Of a DNA stretch of 64,000 bases, positions 21,550 to 52,944 are shown one piece after another. Location: the NCBI GenBank assembly GCA_017510065.1, contig JAFWOB010000190.1:1-64000 (forward strand), in the 5' to 3' direction. Every line of letters begins with the position of its first letter. The first letter of the stretch is position 1. Position numbers and translations under genes: made by a program. The notes beneath the pieces are model-generated. The model was not told the origin of the DNA, did not search any database, and worked only from the letters and a program-made list of their open reading frames with translations. The stretch is from Parasporobacterium sp. (lineage in GTDB: Bacteria; Bacillota; Clostridia; Lachnospirales; Lachnospiraceae).

Positions 21550-21572
21550 TTCCTGTCTGCATCAAACCCGAA

Positions 21573-21774
21573 GCTATGCATGATTTTTTCTGAAAATGTG
21601 CAACAAAAACGAGGCTATGCATGATTTTTGAAAATGCTCTGCATCAAAGCAGAGGGTATGCACGATTTTTGCCCCTGATTACAGGCTGAAATCATGCATA
21701 CCCTCTTATTTTTTACAAAAAATCATGCATAGCCTCGCAAACGCTGCAGGCCGATCTCTAAAATCATGCATAGC
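21573..21774 (+). repeat. 202-bp palindromic repeat element, copy 1
   Basis: Three GCTATGCATGATTTT-type motifs start at 21573, 21614 and 21655 (spacing 41, 41); three inverted copies have GCATA(G/C)C at 21696, 21727 and 21768 (spacing 31, 41). Inner motifs are 34 bp apart. The copy at 36139-36340 has the same length and the same spacings in reverse order. Lies between convergent genes and fills most of the 325-bp gap. Confidence 0.9.
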
Positions 21775-21823
21775 CCCGCAAATGATGCAGGCTACGCCGC
21801 AAATCCCAAAACTTCGCCAACGC

Positions 21824-22279
21824 CTAGCGCAGCTTGTCCAGGAACTTGTCCACTTTCCTCTGTTTCTTGGCTTCCACGCCGCCCTCGAGCTTCGGGCCTC
21901 TCACGTATTTGGCGGAGAGTACGTACACGCCGGAAACTTTGGCCTTGACTTCCTGCTTCGGCAGAAGGGTCTTGTAAACTTCCGGATCACAGATCAGGCT
22001 CATGACGCGGTTGCCGGCCTTGACCTTCAGTACAGGCATCTTGGTCAGCTTGGCCAGTCTTCCCGTGGACTCGGCAACGACTTTGGGAAGTCCGGAATCC
22101 TTCATCCGCAGCTTTTTCATATCGATAATATACAGCGAAAGGGTCTGCGCCGTTTTGGCCATCTCTTCCAGCTGCTCGTCCTGCTTTTTCTGCCTCTTCT
22201 TGCCTACGATCATCAGGACAATGAACGCAGCGATCACCAGCACAAGTACGATTAATAAAATGATAGTCCAAATGGGCAT
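21824..22279 (-). CDS. Hypothetical protein with N-terminal membrane anchor
   Basis: A 151-residue protein: one strongly hydrophobic helix at about 5-26, a charged coiled-coil-like stretch (KKRQKKQDEQLEEMAK) and a soluble C-terminal domain with many lysines. The topology suggests a single-pass protein with its bulk in the cytoplasm. No family recognised. It lies 71 nt downstream of gntR and may be read from the same transcript. GGAAGGA precedes the ATG. Confidence 0.75.
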   Translation of the reverse strand: MPIWTIILLIVLVLVIAAFIVLMIVGKKRQKKQDEQLEEMAKTAQTLSLYIIDMKKLRMKDSGLPKVVAESTGRLAKLTKMPVLKVKAGNRVMSLICDPEVYKTLLPKQEVKAKVSGVYVLSAKYVRGPKLEGGVEAKKQRKVDKFLDKLR

Positions 22280-22349
22280 TTCAAATACTTCCTTTCCGAA
22301 AATTACCCGGGTATTTTATCATCAAACGAATACTCGTGCAAGGGCAGAA

Positions 22350-23021
22350 TCAGTTCCCCGCTCTCAAGGAGTTAAGGATGTATTTTTCCTGGAGCTCGAT
22401 ATGGTGCTCGATGTCCTTTTTTACAGCCTTCTCGTTCTTTTTATACATGTCCTGGATGATCTTGCCATGTTCTTCCAGAATGTTGTTTTTGTTCTTGATA
22501 TCCGCAATGTACTCCAAACGGTACCGGTAAATGTGCTCTTTCAGCCTGCTTAAGATCATGATCAACTGACTGTTGGAAGAATAGATGCAGATCTGATCAT
22601 GGAACCTGACATCCAGCTTGGCGATCCGCTCGATATCATTTTCTTTGATCGCTTCGCCGATCTCGGCGTTGATCTCCTCCAGTTTCTGAATATCTTCCTC
22701 CGATGCGTTCTGACACGCGAGCTGACAGGCCAGTCCTTCCAGGGCTTTCCGGATCTCCAGTACTTCCTTCAGGTCCTTTGCGTTGATCGGCGCCACTTCC
22801 GCGCCTTTGCGTGCGGTGAGGCGAACCAGGCCTTCCTGTTCCAGTTTCCGGATCGCTTCTCTGACGGGAGTCCTCGACACTCCCATCTCATTGGCCAGCT
22901 TGATCTCCATCAGCCGCTCTCCCGGTTTTAATTCCCCGGTAACGATTGCTTCTCTCAGAGTTTTGAAAACGATGTCACGTAAAGGAATATATTCATCAAA
23001 ACTCAACTTTAAATTTGCCAT
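22350..23021 (-). CDS. GntR-family (FadR/FCD subfamily) transcription regulator
   Basis: A 223-residue regulator with an N-terminal winged helix (LANEMGVSRTPVREAIRKLEQEGLV) and an all-helical FCD ligand-binding domain with the metal-binding HDQI and HH residues expected for the subfamily. The start at 23021 follows GAGGGAGGA; the longer frame to 23084 lies within ispE. It overlaps the end of ispE by 26 nt and is co-transcribed with it. The target genes are not evident. Confidence 0.88.
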   Translation of the reverse strand: MANLKLSFDEYIPLRDIVFKTLREAIVTGELKPGERLMEIKLANEMGVSRTPVREAIRKLEQEGLVRLTARKGAEVAPINAKDLKEVLEIRKALEGLACQLACQNASEEDIQKLEEINAEIGEAIKENDIERIAKLDVRFHDQICIYSSNSQLIMILSRLKEHIYRYRLEYIADIKNKNNILEEHGKIIQDMYKKNEKAVKKDIEHHIELQEKYILNSLRAGN

Positions 23022-23868
23022 ATCTTCCTCCCTCGAAACAGAGAAATGCCTCCTGCGCTGCTTTGTCGTCCGTAAATATGCCAAACACCGTAGGACCGGA
23101 ACCGCTCATCAGCGCTTTGACAGCGCCTTTGTCGATCAGCCGTTTTTTTATGTCCAGGATCTCCGGATATTCCCGGGTCACCACCGCTTCCAGGATGTTC
23201 CCCATATGGGCCGCAATGTCGCTGACATCCTTCCTGTCCAGAGCTTTCCTAAGCAGGTCAATATCCGGGTGAACCGTCCCATTCTCCGGGACCGCTTCCA
23301 GGTACTCATCCAGTGCTTTATACGCCCAGGGCGTAGAAACGCCGAACGGCGGTTTTACGATGACCATACTGCAGGGAGCAAGATCCGGAAGCTTTGTAAG
23401 CTTTTCCCCGATCCCCTCTGCCAGATAGGTCCCCTGCCGCAGGCAGAAAGGAACATCCGCTCCCAGAGAAAGGGCGATCTCATCCATTTCCTGTTCCGTC
23501 ATGTTCAGCTCCAGCAGCTCATTCAAGGCCAGGATCACAGCTGCTCCGTCTGTGGATCCGCCGGCCATGCCTGCCGCTGCAGGAATCCTCTTGGTAATGC
23601 TGATGGAAAAAGAAGGTTCGATGCCGTATTTCCGGCAGACCAGCACCGCTGCTTTCCAGGCAAGGTTTCGTTCATCCGCCGGGACTTCCGGATTGTCGCA
23701 GGACAGGGTAAGACCGCTTCCTGCGCTGCCTCTCCGGACAACGATATCATCACTGACATCCACTGTCTGCATCACCATACGGACCAGATGATATCCATCC
23801 GGCCGCCTGCCGACTACATCGAGCCCCAGATTGACTTTTCCGTATGCTTTTCGAAAAACTTCTTCCAT
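22996..23868 (-). CDS. ispE: 4-diphosphocytidyl-2-C-methyl-D-erythritol kinase
   Basis: GHMP-family kinase of the MEP isoprenoid pathway. The N-terminal KAYGKVNLGLDVVGRRPDGYH and the ATP-binding loop PAAAGMAGGSTDGAA are characteristic, and the length of 290 residues is normal. ATG at 23868 is preferred over the upstream TTG at 23874; only a weak GTGAG lies upstream. Confidence 0.95.
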   Translation of the reverse strand: MEEVFRKAYGKVNLGLDVVGRRPDGYHLVRMVMQTVDVSDDIVVRRGSAGSGLTLSCDNPEVPADERNLAWKAAVLVCRKYGIEPSFSISITKRIPAAAGMAGGSTDGAAVILALNELLELNMTEQEMDEIALSLGADVPFCLRQGTYLAEGIGEKLTKLPDLAPCSMVIVKPPFGVSTPWAYKALDEYLEAVPENGTVHPDIDLLRKALDRKDVSDIAAHMGNILEAVVTREYPEILDIKKRLIDKGAVKALMSGSGPTVFGIFTDDKAAQEAFLCFEGGRYGKFKVEF

Positions 23869-23924
23869 ACACAAAACTCACGCCGCAGGATACCCTGCCG
23901 CATGCTCAGATTGTATTTTTTTTC

Positions 23925-23953
23925 ATACTATCAGATACCGGGAACTATATCAA
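23925..23953 (-). promoter_or_regulatory. Sigma-A type promoter of ispE-gntR
   Basis: Minus strand: -35 TTGATA (23953-23948), 17-bp spacer, -10 TAGTAT (23930-23925). Leader about 50 nt. Confidence 0.65.
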
Positions 23954-24017
23954 GAAATGTTACTAATTGTTAACATTAATGCCTAAATTCTATTAATTCT
24001 ACAAGCTTCAGGCAGAA

Positions 24018-24254
24018 TTATTGACAAATCCGCAGGTTTTCCGCATCCTCAAAGACAGAAAGAACTTTTTCAAAATAGGCGCCCGCATCCTCTGTATGGA
24101 TCAGGCGCACACACAGATACGGCTGCTCCGTCAGACAGTCATACAGAGCGTCCAGATTGGCTCCGTAATAATCCGGAAATGAAAACATCGTCTTCAGGTA
24201 TTGATGCGCTGTCTCTTTTTCTCCCAGTTTCCTGGCATCCAGAATCACGTACAT
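24018..24254 (-). CDS. Barstar-like ribonuclease inhibitor
   Basis: A 78-residue acidic protein matching barstar: FPDYYGANLDALYDCLTE covers the helix and loop of barstar that plugs the barnase active site. It starts one base after the barnase stop, so the toxin and inhibitor are coupled. It has no signal peptide, so it protects the cytoplasm from unexported enzyme. Confidence 0.9.
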   Translation of the reverse strand: MYVILDARKLGEKETAHQYLKTMFSFPDYYGANLDALYDCLTEQPYLCVRLIHTEDAGAYFEKVLSVFEDAENLRICQ

Positions 24255-24255
24255 A

Positions 24256-24810
24256 TCAGTCTTCCTCCCCGTACAGAAGCTCGAAGGTGTTATAATGGTC
24301 CTCCGTAAAATAGATCAGCCCGTCATTGGAATAAATGATCCGGTCATCCTGCCGGTACCCGCCTTCGTAGTTGACGTCGCACTCATAGTATTTCCGGCTC
24401 TTTTTCTCCGGCAAATGACCTTCCCGGTTACCGAAGTTGTCTCCGCCGATGCATTTGCCGGGAGCCACGTCCCAGAGATTCCCCTTATTGCTGACCCAAC
24501 CCAGCTTCTTCGCTTCGCTTTTGGTAATGTAATTATCGGGCAGATGCTCATACAGATGCAGGTATTCCGCCACATCATCCTTGGTATAGTACTCCCCGTC
24601 CTCCCGGATGGTCTCTTTCTGCGGGGCCGTGGTTTGCTCCTGCGAGGCCGCGGACGTGGTCTGCTCCTGCGCAGACGCTGTTTCTGTGGTCTGCGGCTGG
24701 TTCTTTCCGGATCTTCCTCCCGCGCCGGCACATCCGCTGAACGCAGTCAACGCCAGCAGCATCATCAGGACTGCTGCCAGGATCCTTAAGGAAATGTGTT
24801 TCTTTTTCAT
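24256..24810 (-). CDS. Secreted barnase-type ribonuclease, predicted lipoprotein
   Basis: A 184-residue RNase of the N1/T1 (barnase) family. A lipoprotein signal ends in AFSGC (Cys27), followed by a Gln/Thr/Ala-rich linker and the barnase domain from about residue 75. Catalytic residues line up with barnase Glu73 (YYECDVNY), Arg87 (DRIIYS) and His102 (DHYNTF). It would be anchored outside the cell, where it could degrade RNA or act on competitors. It lies 29 nt downstream of the ABC exporter gene on the same strand. Confidence 0.92.
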   Translation of the reverse strand: MKKKHISLRILAAVLMMLLALTAFSGCAGAGGRSGKNQPQTTETASAQEQTTSAASQEQTTAPQKETIREDGEYYTKDDVAEYLHLYEHLPDNYITKSEAKKLGWVSNKGNLWDVAPGKCIGGDNFGNREGHLPEKKSRKYYECDVNYEGGYRQDDRIIYSNDGLIYFTEDHYNTFELLYGEED

Positions 24811-24839
24811 ACTATCGTACCTTTCCGTTCTGCGATCTG

Positions 24840-26642
24840 TTACTGTTCTTCGATCTGCTGCTCTGTCATTCCAATCTGCTGCGCCCGTACCATATGGGCG
24901 TATTCTCCGTCCAATGCCATGAGCTCTTCATGGCTTCCCATTTCCAGGATCTTGTTGTCATCGATCACTGCGATCCGGTCCGCATCCCGGATGGTGCTGA
25001 GCCGGTGGGCAATGATCACGGAGGTCCTGCCCTTCGCCAGCTCATTGAAGGCGTGCTGGATCCGGATCTCTGTCACGCTGTCCAGGGCGCTGGTGGCCTC
25101 GTCCAGAATGATAATGGGCGGATTTTTCAGAAATACCCTGGCGATCCCGATCCGCTGCTTCTGCCCGCCCGAGAGCATGACGCCCCGCTCTCCGATGTAG
25201 GACTGATAGCCGTCCGGCATCTGCATGATCTCATCGTGGATCTCCGCTTTTTTTGCCGCCCGGACCACATCCTCATAGGAAGCGTTCGGGTCTCCGTAGG
25301 CGATATTGTCATAGATCGTCCCCGCAAACATAAATACATCCTGCTGGACGATCCCGATATTTTTCCGAAGGGAATGCTGGGTCACCTGACGGATATCCAT
25401 GCCGTCGACCTTGATGGAGCCCTCCTCCACGTCATAAAACCGGGGGATCAGATGGCACAGGGTGGTCTTTCCGCCGCCGGAAGGTCCTACCACTGCAAAG
25501 CAGCTGCCCGCCGGAATATCCAGGGAGATATCCTTCAGCACCTCCACCATGCCTTCCCGCGGATCCTTCTCCCGCCGTTCATAGGAAAAGCTCACATGTT
25601 CGATGCTGATGTGCCCGCTGACATTCTGGAGCACCACGGCATCTTCCGCATCTTTGATCTCCGGCTCTGTCCGCATGATCTCCAGGAACCGCTTGAATCC
25701 GGCCATGCCGGCGATATACTGCTCTACAAACGCCACCAGCTTGCGGATCGGCGTCAGGAACGTGGAAATATACAGGCTGAACGTCACCAGCCCGATGAAA
25801 TCCATGGAACCGCGCATGATAAAATACCCGCCGGCCGTAATCACCAGCACGGACATGATGCTGAGCACAAACTCCATGCCGCCGTGGAAGATCGCCATCG
25901 CCTTGTAGTATCCCCGCTTGGATTCGATGTACTGGGCGTTGGTTTCACGGAATTTGCGGATCTCCTCTTCCTCCATGGCAAATGCCTTGGCAGTGCGGAT
26001 CCCGGAAAATCCGGATTCGATGGAGGTATTGATCTCCGCCATCTTGGCCTTGACCTTGACGCTGGCCGCCGCCATTTTCCGGCGCAGGATCACGGTGAAG
26101 ATCACAAACACAGGCACAGCGGCAAATACGATCACCGCCAGCCGCCACTCGATCCCGCACAGGATGATAAACGCGCCGATGATGGTGATGGAAGAGATCA
26201 ACAGGTCCTCCGGCCCGTGGTGGGCCAGTTCCGTGATCTCGAACAAATCCGTGGTCACCCGGCTCATCAGCTGTCCCGTCCGGTTCCGGTCAAAGAAATG
26301 AAAGCTCAGTGTCTCGATGTGATCGAAGATCTCTCCTCTCATATCCGCTTCCATGTAAACGCCCATCCGGTGGCCCCAGTAGGTGATGATAAAATACAGG
26401 AAGGACCTGGCAACATAGGCTGCCACAATTACCGCCATGACCGTAAAGAAAGTCTTGTACATGCTCTCGGGCAGATACCTTTCCATACATCTTTTGGAAA
26501 CATACGGAAACATCAGGTCAATGCCCGCCACGGACAAGGCACAGACCATATCCAGCAGGAAGAGCCCCATGTGGTTCTTGTAGTGGATGAAAAATGCTTT
26601 CAGGTCGGATATTTTTCTGTAGTCGATTTTATTTGCCGTCAT
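24840..26642 (-). CDS. ABC exporter, fused membrane and ATPase domains
   Basis: A 600-residue half-transporter (MsbA/BmrA type) expected to work as a dimer. Six membrane helices occupy about residues 15-310; the ATPase has GPSGGGKTT (Walker A), LSGGQKQR (signature) and IIILDEATSALD (Walker B). The substrate is unknown. It diverges from the acyltransferase gene by 81 bp and is directly upstream of the barnase-barstar pair, which may depend on its transcript. Confidence 0.93.
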   Translation of the reverse strand: MTANKIDYRKISDLKAFFIHYKNHMGLFLLDMVCALSVAGIDLMFPYVSKRCMERYLPESMYKTFFTVMAVIVAAYVARSFLYFIITYWGHRMGVYMEADMRGEIFDHIETLSFHFFDRNRTGQLMSRVTTDLFEITELAHHGPEDLLISSITIIGAFIILCGIEWRLAVIVFAAVPVFVIFTVILRRKMAAASVKVKAKMAEINTSIESGFSGIRTAKAFAMEEEEIRKFRETNAQYIESKRGYYKAMAIFHGGMEFVLSIMSVLVITAGGYFIMRGSMDFIGLVTFSLYISTFLTPIRKLVAFVEQYIAGMAGFKRFLEIMRTEPEIKDAEDAVVLQNVSGHISIEHVSFSYERREKDPREGMVEVLKDISLDIPAGSCFAVVGPSGGGKTTLCHLIPRFYDVEEGSIKVDGMDIRQVTQHSLRKNIGIVQQDVFMFAGTIYDNIAYGDPNASYEDVVRAAKKAEIHDEIMQMPDGYQSYIGERGVMLSGGQKQRIGIARVFLKNPPIIILDEATSALDSVTEIRIQHAFNELAKGRTSVIIAHRLSTIRDADRIAVIDDNKILEMGSHEELMALDGEYAHMVRAQQIGMTEQQIEEQ

Positions 26643-26723
26643 GTGATCCAGTCCTTTACCATAAACTGTATGATATGATACAATTCTCCCGGCATAATTT
26701 CTACCAAAACAGGAAAAATATCA

Positions 26724-27896
26724 ATGAAAGACCATTCCCATGATACCAGCTACCAACTGTATATTCTCTCCGCCTTTGCCATCTTTTTTGTGATCCTTGG
26801 GCACATCCGTTTCGGTTATGTGGACATGACGGAGATCGGGACGTTTTACGGATGGTTTCCGTATTATTCCTTTCATCTGCCCATTTTCCTGTTCATTTCC
26901 GGGTATTTCTGGAAAGATCCTTCGCAAAGCCGCTATTTCCCGGAATTGGGGCGTTTTTTCCTGAAGAAAGTGAAAAATCTGCTGGTGCCTTATTTTGTGA
27001 TCAACGGCATTTTTCTGCTGCTGGGAAATGTTTTATCCGGACAGGGCATTACCTTCCTGCAGACCTTTACCTGGCATCGCTGGCTCGTGGATCCCTGGAT
27101 CAAGCCGTATCTGATCACCTTTTCCGTTCCGACCTGGTACCTGATTTCCCTGTTTATCGCCGAGATCTATTTTGTGCTGCTCCGAAGTCTCTTCCGGTTG
27201 TTCCTGAAAAAGGAGCTGGTCCGGGAGATCGTCCTTCTGGTGCTGACCCTGGCCCTGGGCGTTCTGGCCGCCTATCTCAAAAAGACCGCCTCTCCTTCCG
27301 ATGCGGCCGTGGTGTACCTGCGCTCCGCAGCCATGCTGTTCTTCCTGCAGGTGGGATATTTCTACAGACATCATCTGGAGTCCGTTGATACCCTGGGAAA
27401 TGTGCCTTATTTCTTGCTCCTGTTCGGCATTCAGTTCCTGATCATTTTACTGTCCGGCAACAATGTGCTGAGCCCGGGACTTTACGCCCTGCTGGACTTC
27501 AATTATACCGGGCACAACTTTTTCCTGGCCGGCCTCACCGGGACCTTCCTGTGGCTTCGCATTTCCCGGCTGATCTCGCTCATCCCGGCCAGAAGCCGGC
27601 TGCTGATCTTTATAGGAAAAAACACCAAATACATCATGTCTTTCCATGTATTTGGTGCTTTTGTGTTAAATTATATTTTTTCTCTGCTTTACAAGGCGCA
27701 GATTGGCATGACGTTCCTGCAGGATTTCAGCCCGCAGCGCTTCCGCTCCTACCTTTACTACGCCTGCGTCGGAAACCCTCGAATGATCCTTATGTATTTC
27801 TTCGCCGGCCTGTTCTTCTCTTTAGGCCTTGCCTGGATCATCCAGCTGGTGAAAGGGCTGTTGGTGAAAGGGCTGTTTCGGAAGAAACGTGCCTGA
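26724..27896 (+). CDS. Membrane acyltransferase (acyltransferase-3 family)
   Basis: A 390-residue polytopic protein with about ten helices. The N-terminal YILSAFAIFFVILGHIRFG carries the family's catalytic-type His in the first helix, and FHLPIFLFISGYFW is the next conserved segment. Such enzymes O-acylate surface polysaccharides or wall glycans. It is convergent with the adenylating ligase gene, which could supply an activated acyl group (inference). Confidence 0.85.
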   Translation: MKDHSHDTSYQLYILSAFAIFFVILGHIRFGYVDMTEIGTFYGWFPYYSFHLPIFLFISGYFWKDPSQSRYFPELGRFFLKKVKNLLVPYFVINGIFLLLGNVLSGQGITFLQTFTWHRWLVDPWIKPYLITFSVPTWYLISLFIAEIYFVLLRSLFRLFLKKELVREIVLLVLTLALGVLAAYLKKTASPSDAAVVYLRSAAMLFFLQVGYFYRHHLESVDTLGNVPYFLLLFGIQFLIILLSGNNVLSPGLYALLDFNYTGHNFFLAGLTGTFLWLRISRLISLIPARSRLLIFIGKNTKYIMSFHVFGAFVLNYIFSLLYKAQIGMTFLQDFSPQRFRSYLYYACVGNPRMILMYFFAGLFFSLGLAWIIQLVKGLLVKGLFRKKRA

Positions 27897-27935
27897 ACCC
27901 GTTCCTGAGCCTGCGCCTGAACCCGCGCCGGGATC

Positions 27936-29471
27936 TTATTTCAGATCCGGGATCATCTTCGCCAGGGCAATCCTGTCCGCTTTCACATTCGCATTATACG
28001 GAATGCTGTCCAGATGCACGATCTTTTCCGGCATCGCGTATTTCGGGAGCTTCACTTTCAGGGAGGATTTCAGATCCTTCTCGGAAATGCTTCCCGTGTA
28101 GAACAGGAAGATCCAGCCGGACTCCTTGTCATGCACGCAGCAGCAGTCCTGGGTTCCTTCGATGCCTTTGGTGGCAAATTCCACTTCGCCCAGCTCCATA
28201 CGGTAGCCGTTGTGCTTGATCATGTTGTCCTTGCGGCCAACTACTACCAGCTCTCCTTTTTCATTCAAATAGCCCATGTCGCCGGTGCGGAAGAACAGTT
28301 CGTTGTAGCCCTTCTTCATCGGATCGTTGACAAAGACCGCCTGGTTGCGGGCGTCATCTTTATAGTAGCCGGAGAACATCCACGGGTTGTGGATCAGCAT
28401 TTCGCCCTTCTCACCTCTCGGCAGTTCATTGCCCTCTTCATCCACAATAAGGATGTGGGTGCAGTGATAGGGAATCCCGGAGGGAACATTTTCATCATCC
28501 CCGTACTCTCTGTTGACCTTGAACAAGGAAGCAGACAACAGCTCCGTGCTGCCGTAGAAATTCCAGAACTTGCCAGCCTTCGGCGCAGCGCTCTCCCACT
28601 GCTTCATGACCTTGCCGTTGATGGTCTCGCCCGACGGAAGGATGAATTCCAGATCCGGAAGGCATCCAGGCTCTAACACGCCTGCTTCCGCCACAGCGTT
28701 GAAGCTGGAGGGCGTCATGCACAGCTCTGTGATATGATTTTCCTGCAGCTGCTCCACCATTTTCTTCGGGAATGACAGCAAAGAGGCGGACAAGACATGA
28801 ACCGTCGCGCCCACCGCCAGCGGCGGATAAATATCCAGCAGGCAGTTCGCGTAGAAGAACGGTGACTGGTTGCCGAATACGGTATTCTCATCAAATGGAT
28901 ATCGTCTGTACGTAAACTCCGAATAGTCGATCAGATCCCCGTGGGTATGGACAACGCCCTTGGGAACGCCGGTGGATCCGCTGGTATACATGATAAACAG
29001 CGGGTCAAAGAAATTGCTCTGTTCCCGGATCGCCTCCAGGTATTCCATGTCGATCGGCGCGTCTGTCAGGCTGCTGTACGGTACAAACCGGTACTGCTCC
29101 TTTAGCGCTTCCTTCGTGGCCTCCGCCTTCTCATCGTAGATCACCAGCTTCGGCTCCAGTTTCTCAAAGATGATCTGCAGCCGTTCGACCGGAGACGTCG
29201 GATCCAGCGGGATATAAAAGCATCCTGCATATAAAATGCCCATGGTGGCGATCAGGTTCGGCACATGGCGGGCGTCCATCAGGATCACGACCGGATCCTT
29301 GTGCAGGTCAAACTGCTTCAGCGCACAGCCTACCCGCATAGAGGCGTCTCTCATCTGGGTGAAGGTCAGGGCTTCCTTTTCATCCACAAATGCATTCTTG
29401 TCCGGAAATTTTTCCGCTGAATTTTCCAGATACTCCAGAACATTGTTTACTTTGTAGTACTTTTTCATCAT
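27936..29471 (-). CDS. AMP-forming acyl/amino-acid ligase
   Basis: A 511-residue adenylate-forming enzyme of the ANL superfamily. YTSGSTGVPKGVVHTHG is the P-loop-like A3 motif, YGSTE and GDMGYLNEKGELVVVGRKDNMIK follow, and KADRIAL near the C-terminus holds the catalytic lysine. YIPLDPTSPVERL recalls DltA and NRPS adenylation domains more than fatty acyl-CoA synthetases, but no carrier protein gene lies nearby. Two adjacent ATGs (29471, 29468) follow GGGAG. It is 17 nt downstream of the small membrane protein gene. Confidence 0.82.
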   Translation of the reverse strand: MMKKYYKVNNVLEYLENSAEKFPDKNAFVDEKEALTFTQMRDASMRVGCALKQFDLHKDPVVILMDARHVPNLIATMGILYAGCFYIPLDPTSPVERLQIIFEKLEPKLVIYDEKAEATKEALKEQYRFVPYSSLTDAPIDMEYLEAIREQSNFFDPLFIMYTSGSTGVPKGVVHTHGDLIDYSEFTYRRYPFDENTVFGNQSPFFYANCLLDIYPPLAVGATVHVLSASLLSFPKKMVEQLQENHITELCMTPSSFNAVAEAGVLEPGCLPDLEFILPSGETINGKVMKQWESAAPKAGKFWNFYGSTELLSASLFKVNREYGDDENVPSGIPYHCTHILIVDEEGNELPRGEKGEMLIHNPWMFSGYYKDDARNQAVFVNDPMKKGYNELFFRTGDMGYLNEKGELVVVGRKDNMIKHNGYRMELGEVEFATKGIEGTQDCCCVHDKESGWIFLFYTGSISEKDLKSSLKVKLPKYAMPEKIVHLDSIPYNANVKADRIALAKMIPDLK

Positions 29472-29488
29472 CCAGTTCTCCCTTCCTG

Positions 29489-29785
29489 TTATCCGGCTAA
29501 GATACCTGCCACAAACAGAAAAGCCAGGATAGCTGCGATCGCCAGGCTGCATAGAACGATCCCGATGATGCACAGAACTTTCGCCGGTGCCTGGTACCTG
29601 TGATACCCCCACCGCTCGGATTCTTTCTCCAGCATCAGTCCCACCACTGCCGCGATCAGCATAATCGGCACAGCGCATAAAACAATAGAACAGATCCCCA
29701 ATACAAAAGAAGCCACCGCCCTGACGGAAGCTTTTTGAGCACGCATCTGTTCCAGTTCAGCACTGCTGTATTTATTTGCAGGCAT
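29489..29785 (-). CDS. Small two-helix membrane protein (DUF4190-like)
   Basis: A 98-residue protein with a short charged N-terminus and two hydrophobic helices, at about 26-47 and 71-96, separated by RWGYHRYQAPAK. The pattern resembles DUF4190-type proteins; no function is known. The start at 29785 follows CGGAGGGA; an upstream extension to 30001 runs into repeats. Co-transcribed with the ligase. Confidence 0.75.
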   Translation of the reverse strand: MPANKYSSAELEQMRAQKASVRAVASFVLGICSIVLCAVPIMLIAAVVGLMLEKESERWGYHRYQAPAKVLCIIGIVLCSLAIAAILAFLFVAGILAG

Positions 29786-29950
29786 AGATATCCCTCCGTG
29801 TAAAAAAACCGGATTTATTATCCCATAAACTGCGCCGCTGCGCAAGACTGCCCTGTGAAACGGGCTTGATACAAGTATCGGATACAAGTTACGGGGACAA
29901 GTTCCGGGGACACGTCCCCGGATAGCGCGGGGGATGCAGGATTTTCGCGT

Positions 29951-30214
29951 TTGTGTACGGGAACTGCACGTTTTTCGCGTTTGTGTACGGGAACTGTACA
30001 AAATTTGCAGTTGTGTACCTTTTGTTTCTCCAAAAAGGCATAAAAAAGCCCGGCTCCGCTATAATAAATGGTCATCTTGTACAAGTCTGGAGCCATTTCA
30101 TCAGACACTTTTGCCAATGGAGCCGGAATATTTTATAATCGTTGCGGTACACAACTGGAGATTTTGTGCAATTAGGGTACACAACTGGAGATTTTGTGCA
30201 TCTGGCGTACACAA
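29951..30214. repeat. 30-bp-period palindromic repeat array, copy 1
   Basis: TTGTGTAC starts at 29951, 29981 and 30011; the complement GTACACAA starts at 30147, 30177 and 30207. All spacings are exactly 30 bp, and the two halves flank a core of about 130 bp. Together with a separate 7-bp hairpin at 29904-29921 and a 3 x 21-bp tandem at 30261-30323, it occupies the 558-bp gap between cysE and the small membrane protein gene. A second copy of this family is at 59507-59685. Confidence 0.9.
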
Positions 30215-30260
30215 TCGAAGTTTTTGACACACTGCTGCCTTGCCAAGCTGCCTTCCTGCG

Positions 30261-30323
30261 CTGCCGTACCGCAGGCCGAACCTGCCGTACCGCAAGCCAG
30301 ACCTGCTGCACCACAGCCGACCT
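30261..30323. repeat. Three 21-bp tandem repeats 3' of cysE
   Basis: CTGCCGTACC at 30261 and 30282, and the variant CTGCTGCACC at 30303. GC-rich and directly downstream of the cysE stop on the minus strand. Confidence 0.6.
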
Positions 30324-30343
30324 TACCTCCCCACGGCCCGGGT

Positions 30344-31159
30344 CTACTGCACCACGGTCTTGCCGGGTTCCACCGAATGGGTCAGCCACACGTTGCCGCC
30401 GATCACGCAGTTGTCTCCGATATAGACATCTCCGCCCAAGATCGTGGCGCCGGCGTAGATGACCACGTTGTTGCCGATATTGGGGTGACGTTTGATGCCC
30501 TTGACCAAGGTGCCGTCTTCCGCCACCGGGAAGCTCTTGGCGCCGAGGGTCACATGCTGGTACAGCTTGACATTTTCCCCGATCACGCAGGTCTCGCCGA
30601 TAACCACACCTGTGCCGTGGTCAATGAAAAAATGCCGGCCGATGGAAGCTCCCGGATGGATGTCGATTCCGGTTTTCCGGTGGGCGTATTCCGACATGAG
30701 TCTGGCCACCAGATTCTGGCCCATCAGATACAGCTCATGGGCGATCCGGTGGGTGCCGATGGCGATAAAAGCCGGGTACGCTAAAATGATCTCGTCCACG
30801 CTGGATGCCGCCGGGTCGCCTTCATACCCTGCTGCCACATCCGACTGCAGGATCTCATAGATGGCAGGGATCTTTTCAATCACTTTCTCGGAAACTACGG
30901 CTGCCTGTTCCGGTCCCATTTTCTTGACCAGCGCCTGCTGAAGGTACTCATCGGCTTTCTTCAGCGCGTCCGCGCGCAGGTCCTCACATTCCCGGCAGAA
31001 CAGCTCCGGATATTTCCGGTAGGTCGGGAACATGGCGTCCAGTAAAAACAGCAGGGCCCGCTCGATATTTTTCTGAAACCCCACATAATCCGTATCAAAT
31101 CCGTATCCGCTCTCTTTGCTTAATCGTTCCAGCTGAACTGAGATCTTATCGTATTCCAT
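30344..31159 (-). CDS. cysE: Serine O-acetyltransferase
   Basis: Makes O-acetylserine for cysteine synthesis. The 271-residue protein has a long helical N-terminal half and a C-terminal left-handed beta helix of hexapeptide repeats, including [23 protein letters not shown], which holds the catalytic histidines. Length and layout match the long-N-terminus SAT subtype. Divergent from dus. Confidence 0.92.
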
Positions 31160-31328
31160 ATTTCTCCACTGCTTCCTGCAAATGCGCCGTCGGCGCAGGT
31201 TCCGGTACTTTCAGGAAACCCCTCTCAGGGATAGTTCCTGCCAGCTATTCTATCACAAAACTCTTCTTTGTGTTACCCTTGCTTTCTTTTCGGTTATCCT
31301 GTACCATTTCCGTCGAACGGAGGATTCC

Positions 31329-32333
31329 ATGAACATTTACCTTGCACCGATGGAAGGCATCACCGGACACATTGTCCGCAACGCTTTTCTGCACCATTTC
31401 GGACAGATCGATAAATATTTTACCCCCTTTATCCCGGCGGCAAAGCGGCTGAGCCGCAAGATCCTGCGGGACATCGACCCTGCCAATAATGAAGGGATCC
31501 GCCTGGTCCCCCAGCTAATCTCCAACCAATCCGATGAGATTCTCGACATGATCCGGCAGTTGAAAGACCGCGGATTCTCTGAATTCAACATCAACCTGGG
31601 CTGCCCTTCCGGCACGGTGGTCAGCAAAAAACGGGGCAGCGGCATGCTGCTGTACCCGGAAGAGCTGGACCGGTTCCTGGATGGTATTTACAACGGCGCG
31701 GATGTTCCCGTTTCCGTTAAGACCCGGATCGGTTTTTATGCGGTAAATGAATGGCCAACCCTCCTTGCGATCTACCGGCGTTACCCCATGAGCGAATTTA
31801 TCATCCACCCCCGGGTCCGGGCGGAAATGTATACGGGCTTTCCGCATCTGGAGGCATTTCAGGCTGCCTATGAAGTGTTTGCGGAGGATGGCGCTGCTGC
31901 ATCGGGCGATGACGCTTCTGCCGCATCGGTGGACGCCGCAGCGGATCCGGTCACCCTCTGCTACAACGGCGACATCTGGGATACGGCCTGCTACGCCAAT
32001 GTCATGAAGCATTTTCCGAAGCTGGACACCATCATGATCGGCCGCGGGCTTCTGGCAAGGCCGGACCTGGCCTGCTGCATCAAAGGCGTGCCCGTTCCGG
32101 ACACCCGGGAGAAGATCCGTGCGTTCTGTGATGAGATTTACGACGGCTACCTGTCGATCTTTTCCGGAGAAAAAGATGTCTTCATGCATATGAAAGAGAT
32201 CTGGGCCAATCTGGGAAAAAGCTTTGAAGACAGCGACCGGCTGGTCAAGAAGCTGATGAAGAGCCAGTCTCCTTCCGAGTACCGTTATCTCATGGATCAG
32301 ATCTTTGACACTTTGGAATTGAGCCCTCGCTGA
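31329..32333 (+). CDS. tRNA-dihydrouridine synthase family protein
   Basis: A 334-residue FMN enzyme that reduces uridine in tRNA. YLAPMEGIT at the start binds FMN, NINLGCPSG holds the catalytic-type Cys, and MIGRGLLARPDL is the C-terminal phosphate-binding segment. The ATG at 31329 follows CGGAGGA. An Ala/Asp-rich stretch (about bases 31885-31949) interrupts the barrel, as in murI. The 3' end overlaps the convergent ygiQ-like gene by 37 bp. Confidence 0.88.
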   Translation: MNIYLAPMEGITGHIVRNAFLHHFGQIDKYFTPFIPAAKRLSRKILRDIDPANNEGIRLVPQLISNQSDEILDMIRQLKDRGFSEFNINLGCPSGTVVSKKRGSGMLLYPEELDRFLDGIYNGADVPVSVKTRIGFYAVNEWPTLLAIYRRYPMSEFIIHPRVRAEMYTGFPHLEAFQAAYEVFAEDGAAASGDDASAASVDAAADPVTLCYNGDIWDTACYANVMKHFPKLDTIMIGRGLLARPDLACCIKGVPVPDTREKIRAFCDEIYDGYLSIFSGEKDVFMHMKEIWANLGKSFEDSDRLVKKLMKSQSPSEYRYLMDQIFDTLELSPR

Positions 32334-34321
32334 CGGGCTGCGCCTTTGCCTTGGGACGGCCTGGATGATTTGCCGTTCGCAGGCTTCCTGCTCGCCGGCT
32401 TGCCGGGACCTGACTGCTTGCCGCCGGCTGCCTGCTTGCCGCCGCCTGACTGCTTGCCACTGCCCGCCGGCTTGCCGGCGATCTTTCGCGGCGGGATCAG
32501 GCATTTCTTCCGGTCAAATCCGATCAGATCACTCCGCCCCGCCTTCAGCAGGGCTTTTTTCACCAGATCATAATGTTCGGGATTGCGGTACTGGATCAGC
32601 GCCCGCTGCATGGCTTTTTCCGATGGGTCCGAAGGGATGTACACCTTCTGCATCGTCCTCGGGTCCACGCCCGTATAATACATGACCGTGGAGATCGTGG
32701 AGGGCGTCGGATAAAAATCCTGCACCTGTTCAGGCATGTATCCCATGTCCCGCACCGCTTCCGCCAGCGAGATCGCATCCTCCAGCGTAGAGCCCGGATG
32801 CGACGAGATCAGGTACGGCACCACATACTGGTCCCGGCCTGCCTTCTGATTGATCCGCTCAAACCGCCTGCAAAAATCCCGGTAAACATCTGCCGAGGGC
32901 TTTCCCATCAAGGAAAGCACCCGGTCGCTCACGTGCTCCGGCGCCACCCTCAGCTGCCCGCTGATATGATGCCGGCAAAGTTCCCGCAGGAATTCGTCAT
33001 CCGGATCCGCCATCACATAATCGTATCGGATCCCGGAGCGGACAAATACTTTCTTCACGCCGTCTATGGAACGGAGCTTTCGCAGCAGATCCACATAATC
33101 CCTGTGGGAAACCTGCAGGTTCGGGCAGGGTTTCGGGAACAGGCACTGCCTGTCCGGGCACGCCCCGCGCGTCATCTGTTTTTTACAAGCCGGTGCCCGG
33201 AAATTGGCCGTCGGCCCTCCCACATCGTGGATGTATCCTTTGAATTCCGGATCCTGCGTCATTTCCCCGGCTTCCCGGATCAGAGATTCATGGCTCCTTG
33301 CCTGGATGATCCGGCCCTGGTGAAAGGTCAGCGCGCAGAAACTGCATCCGCCGAAGCATCCCCTGTTGCTGGTCAGGGAGAAGCGGATCTCCTGAAGGGC
33401 CGGCACGCCGCCCTCCGGTTCATAGGACGGATGGTAACTGTTCATGTACGGAAGCTCGTAAATGTCATCCATTTCCTGCATAGTGAGCGGCCTCTGGGGC
33501 GGATTAGCGACCACATACCGGCTGGGACCGTAGGACTCGATCAGGGGCCTTCCGATGCTGAAGTCTGCATTCCGGTACTGGATATAGAAGCTTTCCGCGT
33601 ATTTCAGCCGGTCTTTCTGCATCGTTTCATAATCCGGCAGCCGGATGCCCTCCGCCACCTGCGACACATCCCTCGCTTTCCAGACGGTTCCCGGAATATA
33701 GGTAATGTCGCGGATATCCATGCCGCTGTCCAAAGCCTCCGCCAGCTCGATGATCGACAGCTCTCCCATGCCGTAAAGCAGCAGATCCGCACCGGAATCT
33801 AAAAGGATCGACCGCTTCAGTTTATCGGACCAGTAATCATAATGAGCCAGCCGCCTAAGGCTCGCCTCGATCCCTCCGATGATCACCGGGCAATTTCGAA
33901 AACGCCGGTTGATCAGGTTGCAGTAAACGATCGTCGCGTAATCCGGCCGCTTCCCTGCTTTTCCTCCCGGAGAATAAGCGTCTTCGGAGCGGGGCTTTTT
34001 ATTCACCGTATAATGATTGACCATGGAGTCCATATTTCCGGCACTCACCAGAAATCCCAGCCTCGGCTCGCCAAGCGCCGCAATGCTGTTTTCGTCCCGC
34101 CAGTCCGGCTGGGCAATGATCCCCACCTTATAACCCCGGCTCTCCAGCACCCGGCTGATGATCGCCGGACCAAAAGAAGAGTGATCCACATAGGCATCAC
34201 CAATCACATAAACGAAGTCCGGGCGCTCCCAGCCCCGTTCATGCATCTCTTCCATTGTCATCGGCAGAAACCTGCGCGCTTCACTTTGCGCAGGTCCCTT
34301 TGACCGCTCCTGTCCGGACAT
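32297..34321 (-). CDS. YgiQ-family radical SAM protein
   Basis: A 674-residue UPF0313/YgiQ protein. The 4Fe-4S/SAM motif is CFGGCSFC, preceded by the long N-terminal domain typical of the family (VIGDAYVDHSSFG). Function is unproven in the family. The last 60 residues are a low-complexity tail rich in Gly, Lys, Ser and Pro. It starts three bases after the FTR-like gene stop; AAGGA lies upstream, so the two are coupled. Confidence 0.9.
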   Translation of the reverse strand: MSGQERSKGPAQSEARRFLPMTMEEMHERGWERPDFVYVIGDAYVDHSSFGPAIISRVLESRGYKVGIIAQPDWRDENSIAALGEPRLGFLVSAGNMDSMVNHYTVNKKPRSEDAYSPGGKAGKRPDYATIVYCNLINRRFRNCPVIIGGIEASLRRLAHYDYWSDKLKRSILLDSGADLLLYGMGELSIIELAEALDSGMDIRDITYIPGTVWKARDVSQVAEGIRLPDYETMQKDRLKYAESFYIQYRNADFSIGRPLIESYGPSRYVVANPPQRPLTMQEMDDIYELPYMNSYHPSYEPEGGVPALQEIRFSLTSNRGCFGGCSFCALTFHQGRIIQARSHESLIREAGEMTQDPEFKGYIHDVGGPTANFRAPACKKQMTRGACPDRQCLFPKPCPNLQVSHRDYVDLLRKLRSIDGVKKVFVRSGIRYDYVMADPDDEFLRELCRHHISGQLRVAPEHVSDRVLSLMGKPSADVYRDFCRRFERINQKAGRDQYVVPYLISSHPGSTLEDAISLAEAVRDMGYMPEQVQDFYPTPSTISTVMYYTGVDPRTMQKVYIPSDPSEKAMQRALIQYRNPEHYDLVKKALLKAGRSDLIGFDRKKCLIPPRKIAGKPAGSGKQSGGGKQAAGGKQSGPGKPASRKPANGKSSRPSQGKGAARQRGLNSKVSKI

Positions 34322-34323
34322 TC

Positions 34324-34521
34324 TTATTTTTCCTTATAATACAGCATGCAGTGGCAGAATCCCTCGAACTCCGGATCATTGATCTGATCCCGGAACTCCT
34401 TGCACATACATTTGGTGTCTTCTGTCTGCTCCCTGCGGCAGGGGCAGTATCCGCCGGTCCTCTTCAGACCTTCCTTAACAGTGTCCGCGATTTCCTTGTT
34501 GGGGTTAACTGAAATCTTCAT
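34324..34521 (-). CDS. Ferredoxin:thioredoxin reductase catalytic-chain-like protein
   Basis: A 65-residue protein with three paired Cys motifs, CPC (26-28), CMC (38-40) and CHC (56-58), in the order of the FTR beta subunit, which binds a 4Fe-4S cluster next to a redox disulfide. The gaps (9 and 15) differ from the plant/cyanobacterial 16 and 8. No alpha subunit is nearby, and trxA is about 3 kb away. The start at 34521 follows AGGAGGA. First gene before ygiQ. Confidence 0.8.
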   Translation of the reverse strand: MKISVNPNKEIADTVKEGLKRTGGYCPCRREQTEDTKCMCKEFRDQINDPEFEGFCHCMLYYKEK

Positions 34522-34586
34522 GTTCTTTTCCTCCTTGCGCAACATTGTAGTTATGTATTATAACAAAGCTCCCGCCCGAAATAAAC

Positions 34587-34604
34587 CCGGTCCTTGCGGA
34601 CCGG
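34587..34604. terminator. Short GC hairpin between the FTR-like gene and the ATPase gene
   Basis: CCGGTCC pairs with GGACCGG across TTGC, followed on the plus strand by ATTTTCT. No plus-strand gene ends nearby, so it may be a leader hairpin or a remnant. The gap of 228 bp also holds a TATAAT at 34657-34662 that may serve the ATPase gene. Confidence 0.35.
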
Positions 34605-34749
34605 ATTTTCTGCCTCGATCTGCGGTGGAAGTATGGAAAATATGGTGGGAAATCATTATAATATCATGTGGTTTCCGAACCAAAGCCAACAAACCGCGCA
34701 GCGTCGGCCGCACACCTTAAACGCACTCAAACTACTCACGGAGAAAACA

Positions 34750-36054
34750 ATGTATAAACTGACTTCCAAACTGGTGATCTACCGAAACATCGACAAAGAC
34801 AGCATTCTGTTCAAGCTGGCAGACATCTGCCGGGACTTTGAAGCCGGCGAGGAAAGCCGGGAGGTCCTGACCGGCAGGATCCTGGACGAAATCCACCGCC
34901 TGCTCGACCTGGCCACGGCCTACGGCTTCGACCGCAACCTGTGGCACAACTACCTGGCGTATCTGCTGGCCATGACGGAAAACCCCTTTACTCTGGTCTG
35001 CGAGAAAAACGGCCGGGTCGAAGGCTCCGTCAACAGCTTTGCACAGAACGATTTTGAGATCTTCTACAAGCTGTTTCATTATGATTTTTCGACGATGGAG
35101 GAGATGCTTCATCTGAACTGTTTCTCCCTGATCCAGAACTACGTGTCCGTCGAGAAGAAGGAACAGTTCTACAATAAAAATGTCAGCGCCCGGGTCCGCG
35201 AGCTCAGCAGCTCTATTGAAGCGGTCGAAAAGCCTGAGGAAATGTTCGATGTGATCATGTCCTTTTACAAGCAGTACGGCGTGGGGCCCTTCGGCATGAA
35301 CAAGGCCTTCCGTATCTCGGCCAAAGGAGCGTCCTCCGGGGAAATGTCCATTGTACCGATCATTGCCACCAGCAATGTAGTCCTGGACGACCTGGTAGGC
35401 TATGAAACCCAGAAACAGCAGCTCATCAGAAATACAGAAGCATTCCTGGCCGGCAAGCCCGCCAACAATGTTCTGCTCTACGGCGACGCCGGCACCGGCA
35501 AATCCACCAGCATCAAGGCGCTCCTCAATCTGTATTACGAAAAAGGCCTGCGGATCATCGAAGTTTACAAGCACGAATTCAAGTACCTGCCGGAGATCAT
35601 CAGCATCATCAAAAGCCGCAACTACCGCTTCATCATTTATATGGATGACCTCTCCTTCGAGAGCGCGGAGACGGAGTACAAATACCTAAAAGCCGTAATC
35701 GAAGGCGACCTGGAAGTACGGCCTGAAAATGTGCTGATCTACGCCACCTCCAACCGCCGTCACCTGATCCGGGAAACCTTCAGCGACCGCAACGAGATCA
35801 ACGAAGATGACGTCCACCGCAACGACACCATGGCGGAGCGACTGTCTCTGGCGGCGCGCTTCGGTATCAACATCGGGTATTTCATTCCGAAGCGGGAGGA
35901 ATTCTTCAATATCGTAAAGACTCTCGCCGCGAAAAATCCCCTGATCCAGCTGTCCGAGGAAGAGCTCTTGCGGGAAGCCGACCGCTGGGCAATCCGGCAC
36001 GGGGAAATGTCCGGGCGGAGCGCACAGCAGTTCGTGAATTTCCTGGTCTCCTGA
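34750..36054 (+). CDS. DUF815-family AAA-type ATPase
   Basis: A 434-residue protein. A helical N-terminal half of about 235 residues is followed by an ATPase with GDAGTGKST (Walker A), [11 protein letters not shown] (Walker B-like) and [11 protein letters not shown] (sensor 1). The family is widespread in bacteria and its role is unknown. The start at 34750 follows ACGGAGAA; the longer frame to 34594 covers the hairpin and promoter region. Confidence 0.87.
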
Positions 36055-36138
36055 TCTGCCGCCGCTTACATGGATTGCTGCTTCCATGGGTTGCTATTGC
36101 CATGGATTGCTGCAGCGTGCAGCTGCATCATTTGCGGT

Positions 36139-36340
36139 GCTATGCATGATTTCAGAGCCACCGCTGCATCATTTGCGGCGCTATGCATGATTTTTTGTAA
36201 AAAAACAGAGGCTATGCATGATTTCATACCCCAGAAAGGGGTCAAAATCGTGCATAGCCTCGATTTCGTTACACGGCATTTTTCAAAATCATGCATAGCA
36301 TTGATTTTGATGCAGAATTTTCCTAAAAATCGTGCATAGC
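36139..36340 (-). repeat. 202-bp palindromic repeat element, copy 2 (reverse orientation)
   Basis: GCTATGC starts at 36139, 36180 and 36211 (spacing 41, 31); GCATAGC starts at 36252, 36293 and 36334 (spacing 41, 41). Inner motifs are 34 bp apart. Length and spacings equal those at 21573-21774 read in reverse. It fills most of the 351-bp gap between two convergent genes. Confidence 0.9.
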
Positions 36341-36405
36341 CTCGATTTTAATGCAGTCTCGGAAAGCACCAGCTGCTGCCCGGAAATGCATCAATCGCCG
36401 CCGCT

Positions 36406-37416
36406 CTACAGCAGCCTTACCCCCGCTTTCTCGCAGGCAGCCACCGTTTCCTCGTCCCAGACACTGGACTGCACTTCGCCGATGTGGGCGCAGCCCATCA
36501 GCAGCAGGCAGAGCCTTGACTGTCCGATACCGCCGCCAATGGTCAGCGGCAGTTCATCATTCAGCAGCATCCTGTGGAACGGCAGGGATCTTCTGTCATT
36601 GCAGCCGGCAATGGTCAGCTGGCGATCCAGGGATTCGCTGTCCACGCGGATACCCATGGAGGAAATCTCCATGGCGCGGCCCAGCGTTTTGTGCCAGAAC
36701 AGGATATCGCAGTTCAGAGCCCAGTCATCGTAGTCCGGTGCCCGGCCGTCATGGGGTTTGCCGGAACGCAGCGCACCGCCGATCTGCATGATGCAGGTGG
36801 TGTGATGGTCTTTGACATAGGCATTTTCCCTGCCGTGGCTGTCCAGGTCCGGATACAGATCTTCCAGTTCCTGGGTCGTCACGAAAGAGATCTCCCGGGA
36901 CAGATCAATGTCGATCTGCGGGTAATGCACCTTCACCCGGTCTGCCGTGTTGCAAATCGCGCCGACGATCGCATTTACGATCAGCTTGAGAAAATCCAGG
37001 TTCCGGTTTTCCCTGGTGATCACTTTCTCCCAGTCCCACTGGTCTACATAGATGGAATGATAGTTGTCAAGCTCCTCATCCCTGCGGATTGCGTTCATGT
37101 CCGTGTACAGGCCGTTGCCGACCCGGAAATCATAGCGCTTCAGGGCGAAGCGTTTCCATTTGGCCAGCGAGTGGACCACCTGTGCTTCCTCCCCGCCCAG
37201 GGCAGGAATGTCAAATGCCACCGGCCGCTCCACGCCGTTCAGATTGTCATTGAGGCCTGACGCCTCCATAACAAACAGCGGCGCTGAAACCCGCTTCAGA
37301 TTGAGGGCTCCCGCCAGTTCCTGCTGAAAGATATCTTTAATATAAACGATCGCCCGCTGTGTGTCGTATTCGTCCAGCGGGGAAGCATAGCCTTCCGGTA
37401 TTACTACTCTGCTCAT
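36406..37416 (-). CDS. asnA: Aspartate-ammonia ligase
   Basis: ATP-dependent asparagine synthesis from aspartate and ammonia. The 336-residue length is normal. The class II aaRS-like fold shows in YTDMNAIRRDEELDNYHSIYVDQWDWEK and GGGIGQSRLCLLLM near the C-terminus. GGAGG precedes the ATG. Follows trxA by 91 nt on the same strand. Confidence 0.95.
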   Translation of the reverse strand: MSRVVIPEGYASPLDEYDTQRAIVYIKDIFQQELAGALNLKRVSAPLFVMEASGLNDNLNGVERPVAFDIPALGGEEAQVVHSLAKWKRFALKRYDFRVGNGLYTDMNAIRRDEELDNYHSIYVDQWDWEKVITRENRNLDFLKLIVNAIVGAICNTADRVKVHYPQIDIDLSREISFVTTQELEDLYPDLDSHGRENAYVKDHHTTCIMQIGGALRSGKPHDGRAPDYDDWALNCDILFWHKTLGRAMEISSMGIRVDSESLDRQLTIAGCNDRRSLPFHRMLLNDELPLTIGGGIGQSRLCLLLMGCAHIGEVQSSVWDEETVAACEKAGVRLL

Positions 37417-40891: not shown

Positions 40892-40947
40892 GTTCTTTTT
40901 TTGGTTCAATCCGAAGGCCTATCATACGTGCATAGCCTCAGATTCGC

Positions 40948-40978
40948 TGCAGCCGGACCACAGTCCGGTCCGGCTGCA
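40948..40978 (-). terminator. Hairpin after the 3960-residue surface protein gene
   Basis: TGCAGCCGGACC (40948-40959) pairs with GGTCCGGCTGCA (40967-40978), a 12-bp stem. No T-tract follows, so termination is uncertain. A single GCATAGC motif of the 202-bp element family lies beside it at 40930-40936. Confidence 0.5.
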
Positions 40979-52881: not shown

Positions 52882-52903
52882 TTTTACCCCTTTCCAGCAT
52901 ATC

Positions 52904-52944
52904 AAAACATATCCTCCTGGATTTCCCTCCGGAAGATATGTTTT
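52904..52944 (-). promoter_or_regulatory. Leader hairpin just upstream of the giant gene
   Basis: AAAACATATC (52904-52913) pairs with GATATGTTTT (52935-52944) across 21 nt. On the mRNA the loop carries GGAGG-like runs and lies about 20 nt before the ribosome site. A weak 20-codon reading frame runs through it. It may control translation. Confidence 0.35.

What the first reader, a model, noticed from the sequence alone, without database searches (positions are those of the whole stretch)
21573..36340. Two copies of a 202-bp palindromic element with helically phased motifs, in opposite orientation
At 21573-21774 and 36139-36340, six GCTATGC motifs are laid out as three direct and three inverted, with the inner pair 34 bp apart. 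Spacings are 41/41 | 31/41 in one copy and 41/31 | 41/41 in the other, i.e. the same element flipped. The single odd step (31 against 41) differs by one helical turn, so all motifs would sit on one DNA face. Both copies lie between convergent genes. This looks like a small mobile or protein-binding element rather than chance repetition; a lone half-copy lies at 40930.
Basis: seen in the sequence. Interest (0 to 1): 0.75.

Follow-up and report, generated by a model that had tools for sequence, protein, structure and literature searches.

The report
Phased six-box repeat at gene ends
A roughly 232-base repeat built from six copies of one 30-base recognition box, spaced in whole turns of the DNA helix, sits at dozens of gene ends in two sister gut bacteria, shows signs of selection, and is the landing site of a jumping gene, so it looks like a new relative of the REP/BIME class of bacterial repeats with an unknown binding protein.

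Summary
The unit is a 30-bp bipartite box (TGYAACRAAATCGAGGSTATGCATGATTTT); the window elements are 21558-21789 and 36124-36355. The host genome has 35 such elements (19 with six boxes, 6 with seven, 6 with five, 4 with three) plus a second subfamily. Geometry is nearly fixed: same-strand steps 31 or 41 bp (118 of 132), inner inverted pair 48 bp start to start (34 of 38). Arrays were found only in the host and one sister species (2 of 14 genomes of the genus). Elements lie a median 37 bp from gene 3' ends. In six orthologous pairs box cores differ 4% between the sisters against 12-15% for linkers, other box bases and flanks; one pair left out goes the other way. Box number changes box by box. 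One related species has the empty site (25 bp). No target duplication and no linked Y1 or Mu/TnsB transposase were found. All three left ends of an IS3-like insertion sequence found in the sister genome lie in elements, 17-18 bp past a box, same orientation. Best reading: a BIME-like dispersed element whose boxes bind an unknown protein on one DNA face, probably as a barrier or terminator at gene ends. Protein and function are inferred.

The parts
21558..21789 (+). Element 1 (family I), boxes +,+,+,-,-,- with steps 41/41|48|31/41
21558..21587 (+). box p1
   Evidence: 40 bits
21599..21628 (+). box p2
   Evidence: 47 bits
21640..21669 (+). box p3 (inner)
   Evidence: 34 bits
21688..21717 (-). 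box m1 (inner)
   Evidence: 38 bits
21719..21748 (-). box m2, 31 bp from m1
   Evidence: 42 bits
21760..21789 (-). box m3
   Evidence: 42 bits
36124..36355 (-). Element 2 (family I), same element flipped: steps 41/31|48|41/41
36124..36153 (+). box (38 bits)
36165..36194 (+). box (41 bits)
36196..36225 (+). box (38 bits), 31 bp from its neighbour
36244..36273 (-). box (45 bits)
36285..36314 (-). box (45 bits)
36326..36355 (-). box (43 bits)
40922..40951 (-). single decayed box (12 bits), about 48 bp beyond the 3' end of the 3968-aa ORF 40999-52905(-)
34594..36054 (+). gene with DUF815 domain (ORF 34594-36054; my gene call 34750-36054), ending about 70 bp before element 2
36406..37416 (-). asnA (aspartate-ammonia ligase), ending about 51 bp beyond element 2; in G001 the two stops are 25 bp apart with no element

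Best explanation
It is a dispersed, BIME-like intergenic element. Three to seven copies of a 30-bp bipartite box are set in two inverted half-arrays around a central hairpin or dyad. Steps of 31/41/52 bp put the boxes of a half-array on one face of the helix. Shown by sequence: the element, its geometry, its closeness to gene 3' ends, its restriction to two sister species among those searched, slower change of box cores in place, change of box number one or more boxes at a time, and use as an insertion-sequence target. Inferred: an unknown sequence-specific DNA-binding protein occupies the boxes cooperatively and makes a nucleoprotein block at gene ends that limits transcription read-through and collision in both directions (helped by the central hairpin). 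The element spread as a unit, before the two sisters parted, by an unknown copying step.
For: Fixed geometry in 38 box clusters of the host genome: 31 or 41 bp in 118 of 132 same-strand steps, 48 bp in 34 of 38 inner pairs; the larger deviations are about one helical turn (52/53 five times, 58 once) except one 82, where a weak box lies between. In six orthologous pairs box-core positions differ 18 of 434 (4.1%) against 32 of 241 linker (13.3%), 51 of 341 other box (15.0%) and 517 of 4355 flank positions (11.9%), p<3e-5 for each; the five two-state box positions are between, 13 of 155 (8.4%, p 0.057). Median 37 bp from a gene 3' end (n=58) against 163 bp from a 5' end (n=35); 35 of 44 elements have a 3' end within 110 bp. 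Of 42 element-flanked 3' ends in G000, 7 have an intrinsic terminator before the element; in 25 more a terminator-like hairpin lies inside it, 16 of them the strong central hairpin, -24 to -46 kcal/mol. Inner boxes p3/m1 match each other within elements more than between elements (permutation 0 of 2000; 0 of 5000). An IS lies in the elements at fixed distance and orientation, 3 of 3 left ends, as IS1397/ISKpn1 target REPs (PMC1525189, passages).
Against: No binding protein found. Two of the eight orthologous pairs aligned were left out of the rate test; in one, L113/L091, the boxes are less alike (78.0%) than the rest (89.6%), and in the other, L118/L101, boxes are 84.7% against 58.1% in a poorly alignable surround. 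The core positions were chosen from the same family of sequences, which favours a low rate. The pair-count control for the central hairpin is not above column shuffles (85.3% paired against 84.6%, 94 of 500), so RNA pairing is weakly supported; only a few columns (mainly 15-64, 17-62) show double changes. Neighbouring direct boxes (p1/p2, m2/m3) correlate too, p1/m3 not at all and p2/m2 marginally. No array was found in 12 other, partly incomplete, genomes of the genus, and in G001 the same convergent pair has 25 bp and no element, so it is not needed there. Closeness to 3' ends is also where a neutral insertion would survive best. Element-free convergent 3' ends have a terminator in 14 of 32 cases.
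Confidence: 0.5

Rival explanations
1. Selfish non-autonomous mobile repeat (MITE/REP-like): the boxes are binding sites of a transposase not found here; gene-3'-end location only reflects where insertions are tolerated.
For: Slot-specific signatures show copies descend from one element; TG...CA ends at the outermost boxes; an empty site in G001; two subfamilies with one box plan; closer copies in the L166-L169 group (up to 88%) and a 97% pair in G012, L118/L121.
Against: No excess of flanking direct repeats in 60 elements; the two long matches (12 and 13 bases, L168 and L106) lie 46-96 bp from the boxes and one is terminator sequence. The 3 Y1 genes of G000 have no box in their fetched flanks and G012 gave no Y1 hit. 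Mu/TnsB C-terminal domain not found in G000 or G012. The closest family I paralogues in G000 are 90.8% alike. Slower change of cores in place.
Confidence: 0.28
2. Bidirectional intrinsic terminator or mRNA 3'-end structure acting as RNA, the boxes being by-products of its spread.
For: Central hairpin -24 to -46 kcal/mol followed by T-rich sequence in 16 of 42 flanked 3' ends; only 7 of 42 have another terminator before the element; p3/m1 correlation.
Against: Does not explain phased outer boxes or the fixed steps; the T tracts are often interrupted; pair counts do not beat shuffles; 14 of 32 control 3' ends have a terminator by the same test, so the contrast is modest.
Confidence: 0.15
3. Attachment or landing array evolved with the IS3-like element, that is, part of the transposition system of that IS.
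For: 3 of 3 IS left ends in G012 lie in elements 17-18 bp past a box, same orientation.
Against: The host genome G000 has the elements but no match to that IS end; the IS ends read here do not resemble the box (by eye).
Confidence: 0.05

Closest known systems
REP/BIME elements (bacterial interspersed mosaic elements)
   Same: Dispersed intergenic repeats, regularly spaced units in opposite orientations, mostly downstream of genes (PMC3733652 and PMC2817692, passages), and targets of IS elements including IS3-family ones (PMC1525189, passages).
   Different: The unit is a 30-bp box that is not a palindrome as a whole, no GTAG/CGTC tag, no linked Y1 transposase found, units direct within each half-array, and steps fixed at 31/41/48 bp.
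STAR elements of Staphylococcus
   Same: Interspersed intergenic direct repeats that expand and contract at stable loci (PMC3532100, abstract and outline only).
   Different: The abstract calls them direct repeats and mentions no inverted half; that their motif differs is recalled, not tested.
Tn7/Mu-type transposon ends (several TnsB/MuA sites per end)
   Same: Several 20-30 bp boxes per end and TG...CA termini (recalled).
   Different: No Mu-transpos_C match in G000 or G012, no 5-bp target duplication, two half-arrays joined with no cargo.

Membership tests
REP/BIME | High-copy intergenic repeat near gene 3' ends | tested here: met
   (about 46 inner pairs; fewer than the >100 copies usual for REPs in PMC2817692)
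REP/BIME | Unit is a 20-40 bp palindrome with GTAG or CGTC tag | tested here: not met
   by reading the box consensus: not a palindrome as a whole and neither tag; definition from PMC3733652 passages
REP/BIME | Linked REP-associated tyrosine (Y1) transposase | tested here: not met
   3 Y1 hits in G000 without boxes in the fetched flanks (1.5 kb or to the contig end), none in G012 (79% complete)
REP/BIME | Binding of gyrase, IHF or Pol I | not testable with these tools
   needs ChIP or binding assay
MITE | Terminal inverted repeats | tested here: met
   outermost inverted boxes TG...CA
MITE | Target-site duplication | tested here: not met
   60 elements, no excess of direct repeats over shuffled flanks at 25 or 60 bp and two unexplained longer matches far from the boxes at 120 bp
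MITE | Autonomous parent with same ends | tested here: inconclusive
Tn7/Mu-type ends | TnsB/MuA-type transposase in the genome | tested here: not met
   PF09299: no match in G000 or G012, matches in G002 and G008; both carrier genomes are incomplete (90% and 79%)
Intrinsic terminator | GC hairpin followed by U tract | tested here: inconclusive
   strong hairpin, imperfect T tracts; pair control not above shuffle
STAR element | The published STAR direct-repeat motif | not tested
   motif not searched here

The most novel reading that the evidence does not exclude
A lineage-specific chromosome-insulator system: an unidentified DNA-binding protein of two sister species loads on phased multi-box arrays at some 45 gene ends, and an IS3-like element has evolved to home to these protein-marked boxes.
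Probability: 0.25. Interest if true: 0.78.

Novelty: new variant of a known kind. Interest (0 to 1): 0.58.

Why it matters
BIME-like repeats have been known for decades and their purpose is still argued. Here is a compact, strictly phased version in a gut Clostridium lineage, with in-place rates measurable between sister species, an empty site, two parallel subfamilies and a homing IS. It gives a clean system for asking whether such repeats are selfish or serve as gene-end barriers, and it may lead to an unknown sequence-specific protein.

Tried and rejected
Y1/RAYT mobilisation: Y1 genes found in G000, no box in their fetched flanks. Mu/Tn7-type ends: no PF09299 match in G000 or G012. Known RNA family: no Rfam match in the window at gathering scores. 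Plasmid or phage origin: no match with element 1; no exact family I box pattern in viral contigs. Target duplication: no excess. The 9-bp GCCGCCGCT on both sides of element 2 (57 and 41 bp from the boxes) was considered as a duplication and set aside as GC-rich; no separate test. Side of the 31-bp step relative to the gene that ends there: 11 against 5 in G000, p 0.21. Other Clostridia hits (10 of 17 stretches) are unrelated palindromes, five of them beside a tRNA-Gln gene. One search found nothing because I miscounted a spacer in the pattern; repeated correctly.

Limits: gene calls are my own codon-score calls. Most G012 loci with elements were fetched because they hold them, so 'all 8 testable sites occupied' is biased. 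No G000 element had both flanks in the 80 contigs fetched blind; three single flanks hit contig ends there. The single-motif search of the genus gave 1-3 scattered one-mismatch hits in eight other genomes, control 0-1; I read these as chance. The species-wide scan needed an exact family I inner pair and would miss most of subfamily II. One three-box element (L110) is cut by a contig end. Draft assemblies break at these repeats; the near-identical L178/L179 look like two contig ends over one element.
Full report
What is there. The window holds two 232-bp elements, 21558-21789 and 36124-36355, each of six 30-bp boxes, three direct and three inverted. The box consensus from 268 sites is TGYAACRAAATCGAGGSTATGCATGATTTT, most conserved in TGYA at one end and GSTATGCAYGATTTT at the other.

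Copies. The own genome (G000, 3.47 Mb, 242 contigs) has 218 sites of the 15-base core with up to 2 mismatches against 2 for the reversed pattern. Thirty-eight box clusters of 24 bits or more were read in the host genome; 35 carry the single 31-bp step: 19 with six boxes, 6 with seven, 6 with five, 4 with three, one of these cut by a contig end. The other three belong to a second subfamily with box TGCAACGATTT..CGGGTATG..YGATTTT, mostly steps of 41-42 and inner 48, commonly two or three boxes on a side and no 31-bp step in the copies read. In all 47 inner pairs in G000 (two on matching contig starts) and 16 in G012 match a joint pattern with up to 3 mismatches, with no match to the reversed pattern.

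Geometry. Same-strand steps in the 38 host clusters: 31 (35), 41 (83), 42 (6), 52 (2), 53 (3), 39, 43 and 82 once each; inner pair 48 (34), 47 (3), 58 (1). In 11 clusters of the sister: 31 (9), 41 (28), 40 (1); inner 48 (10), 47 (1). Copies are not independent, so this is not a statistical test, but 31, 41 and 52 bp, and 48 against 58, are steps of one helical turn. The box slots have their own signatures, so the element spread as a whole.

Who has it. Two of 14 genomes of the genus, G000 and G012; single-motif hits in eight others are at the level of 1-3 per genome. With an inner-pair search allowing one mismatch only G000 of 397 sampled genomes of the family matched (G012 was not in that sample). 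An exact scan of one genome for each of 84,980 species gave, besides seven RGIG2565 stretches, ten unrelated palindromes. Plasmid, phage and viral collections gave nothing. The searches listed no paper whose title or abstract start describes this repeat; that library holds open papers only.

Where it sits. Of 44 elements with both neighbours called, 16 lie between convergent, 23 codirectional and 5 divergent genes (14, 18 and 3 of 35 in G000 alone). All neighbour pairs in the same loci, those around elements included: 36 convergent, 180 codirectional, 24 divergent of 240. Gene 3' ends next to an element are a median 37 bp away (n=58), 5' ends 163 bp (n=35); 35 of 44 have a 3' end within 110 bp. 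The 44 include G012 elements.

Change between sister species. Eight host elements have both flanks in the held G012 sequence and all eight sites are occupied, with the fetching bias noted under limits. Of eight pairs aligned, six were used for rates: box cores differ 4.1%, two-state box positions 8.4%, linkers 13.3%, other box positions 15.0%, flanks 11.9%. The two left out: L113/L091, same flanks (89.6% alike) but quite different boxes (78.0%), and L118/L101, boxes 84.7%, rest 58.1%. Box number differs by whole boxes, with hybrid boxes at the joints (six against three in L117/L103; five against seven in L121/L101). In G012 contig C80 (L122) carries subfamily-II elements at the two places where G000 (L101) and other G012 contigs (L118, L121) have subfamily I, with outer flanks about 94-95% alike to G000. 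In G001 the asnA and DUF815 genes are convergent as in the window but only 25 bp apart, with no element: the empty site. The junction is too diverged to show a target duplication.

Insertion-sequence target. Three G012 contigs end in the left end of an IS just after a box. A genus-wide search found exactly three such ends, all in G012: two inside arrays (C95, C96) and one after a single box (C157) that synteny with L083 and L114 identifies as the outer box of a split element. The distance from the end of GATTTT/GATTTC to CTATAGT is 17, 18 and 18 bases, always on the same side. L114, which carries the other part of that split element, ends in the C-terminal part of an rve-type transposase (PF13683 2e-5, 24.7 bits against a cut-off of 26.5), as in the IS3 family; that this is the same IS is inferred. 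REP-specific IS3-family members are known (PMC1525189, passages).

Centre and termination. Inner boxes match each other within elements above permutation, but neighbouring direct boxes do so too, and the whole hairpin does not beat column shuffles. Of 42 flanked 3' ends in G000, 7 have an intrinsic terminator before the element; in 25 others a terminator-like hairpin lies inside, 16 of them the central one and 9 weaker (-8 to -13 kcal/mol). Element-free convergent 3' ends have one in 14 of 32 cases. Termination is possible, not shown.

Reading. The element behaves like a BIME in place, regular spacing, unit turnover and IS targeting, but fails the REP membership tests (tag, palindromic unit, Y1 link). 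Slower change of the cores and one-face phasing favour a bound protein; a barrier at gene ends is the best-supported function and remains inference.

Noticed in passing
G012 contigs C95, C96, C157 (L124, L127, L129; likely other end L114): IS3-like insertion sequence (two related types, about 77% alike at the end) whose three left ends in G012 all follow a box at fixed distance and orientation.
   Followed up: partly
L065, L066, L074, L075, L080; also L070, L073, L076 (other Clostridia and Firmicutes genomes): A 41-bp palindrome TATGCACGATTTTG..AAAATCGTGCATA, a few bases from a tRNA-Gln gene in five of these (L076 shows a piece of one); perhaps an attachment site of an integrating element. Unrelated to the finding.
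   Followed up: partly
window 36070-36120: Short tandem repeat (about 16 bp, three imperfect copies of ATGGRTTGCT...) between the DUF815 stop and element 2.
   Followed up: no
L166, L168, L169 around subfamily-II elements: Shared flanks beyond the boxes that include terminator-like hairpins (GGGGCTGTGAAAAAATG...), suggesting a larger repeat unit in this group.
   Followed up: partly
window 40999-52905 and 53299-59211, minus strand: Two very large ORFs (3968 and 1970 aa) near a sortase-domain gene at 38742-40178; perhaps surface proteins.
   Followed up: no
L101 (G000 C128) against L118/L121 and L122 (G012): G012 holds two versions of this region (duplicate or strain mixture) that carry different element subfamilies at the same places.
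   Followed up: partly
G000 contigs C80 and C204: Three elements within about 9-11 kb on each, an apparent clustering that was not tested.
   Followed up: no
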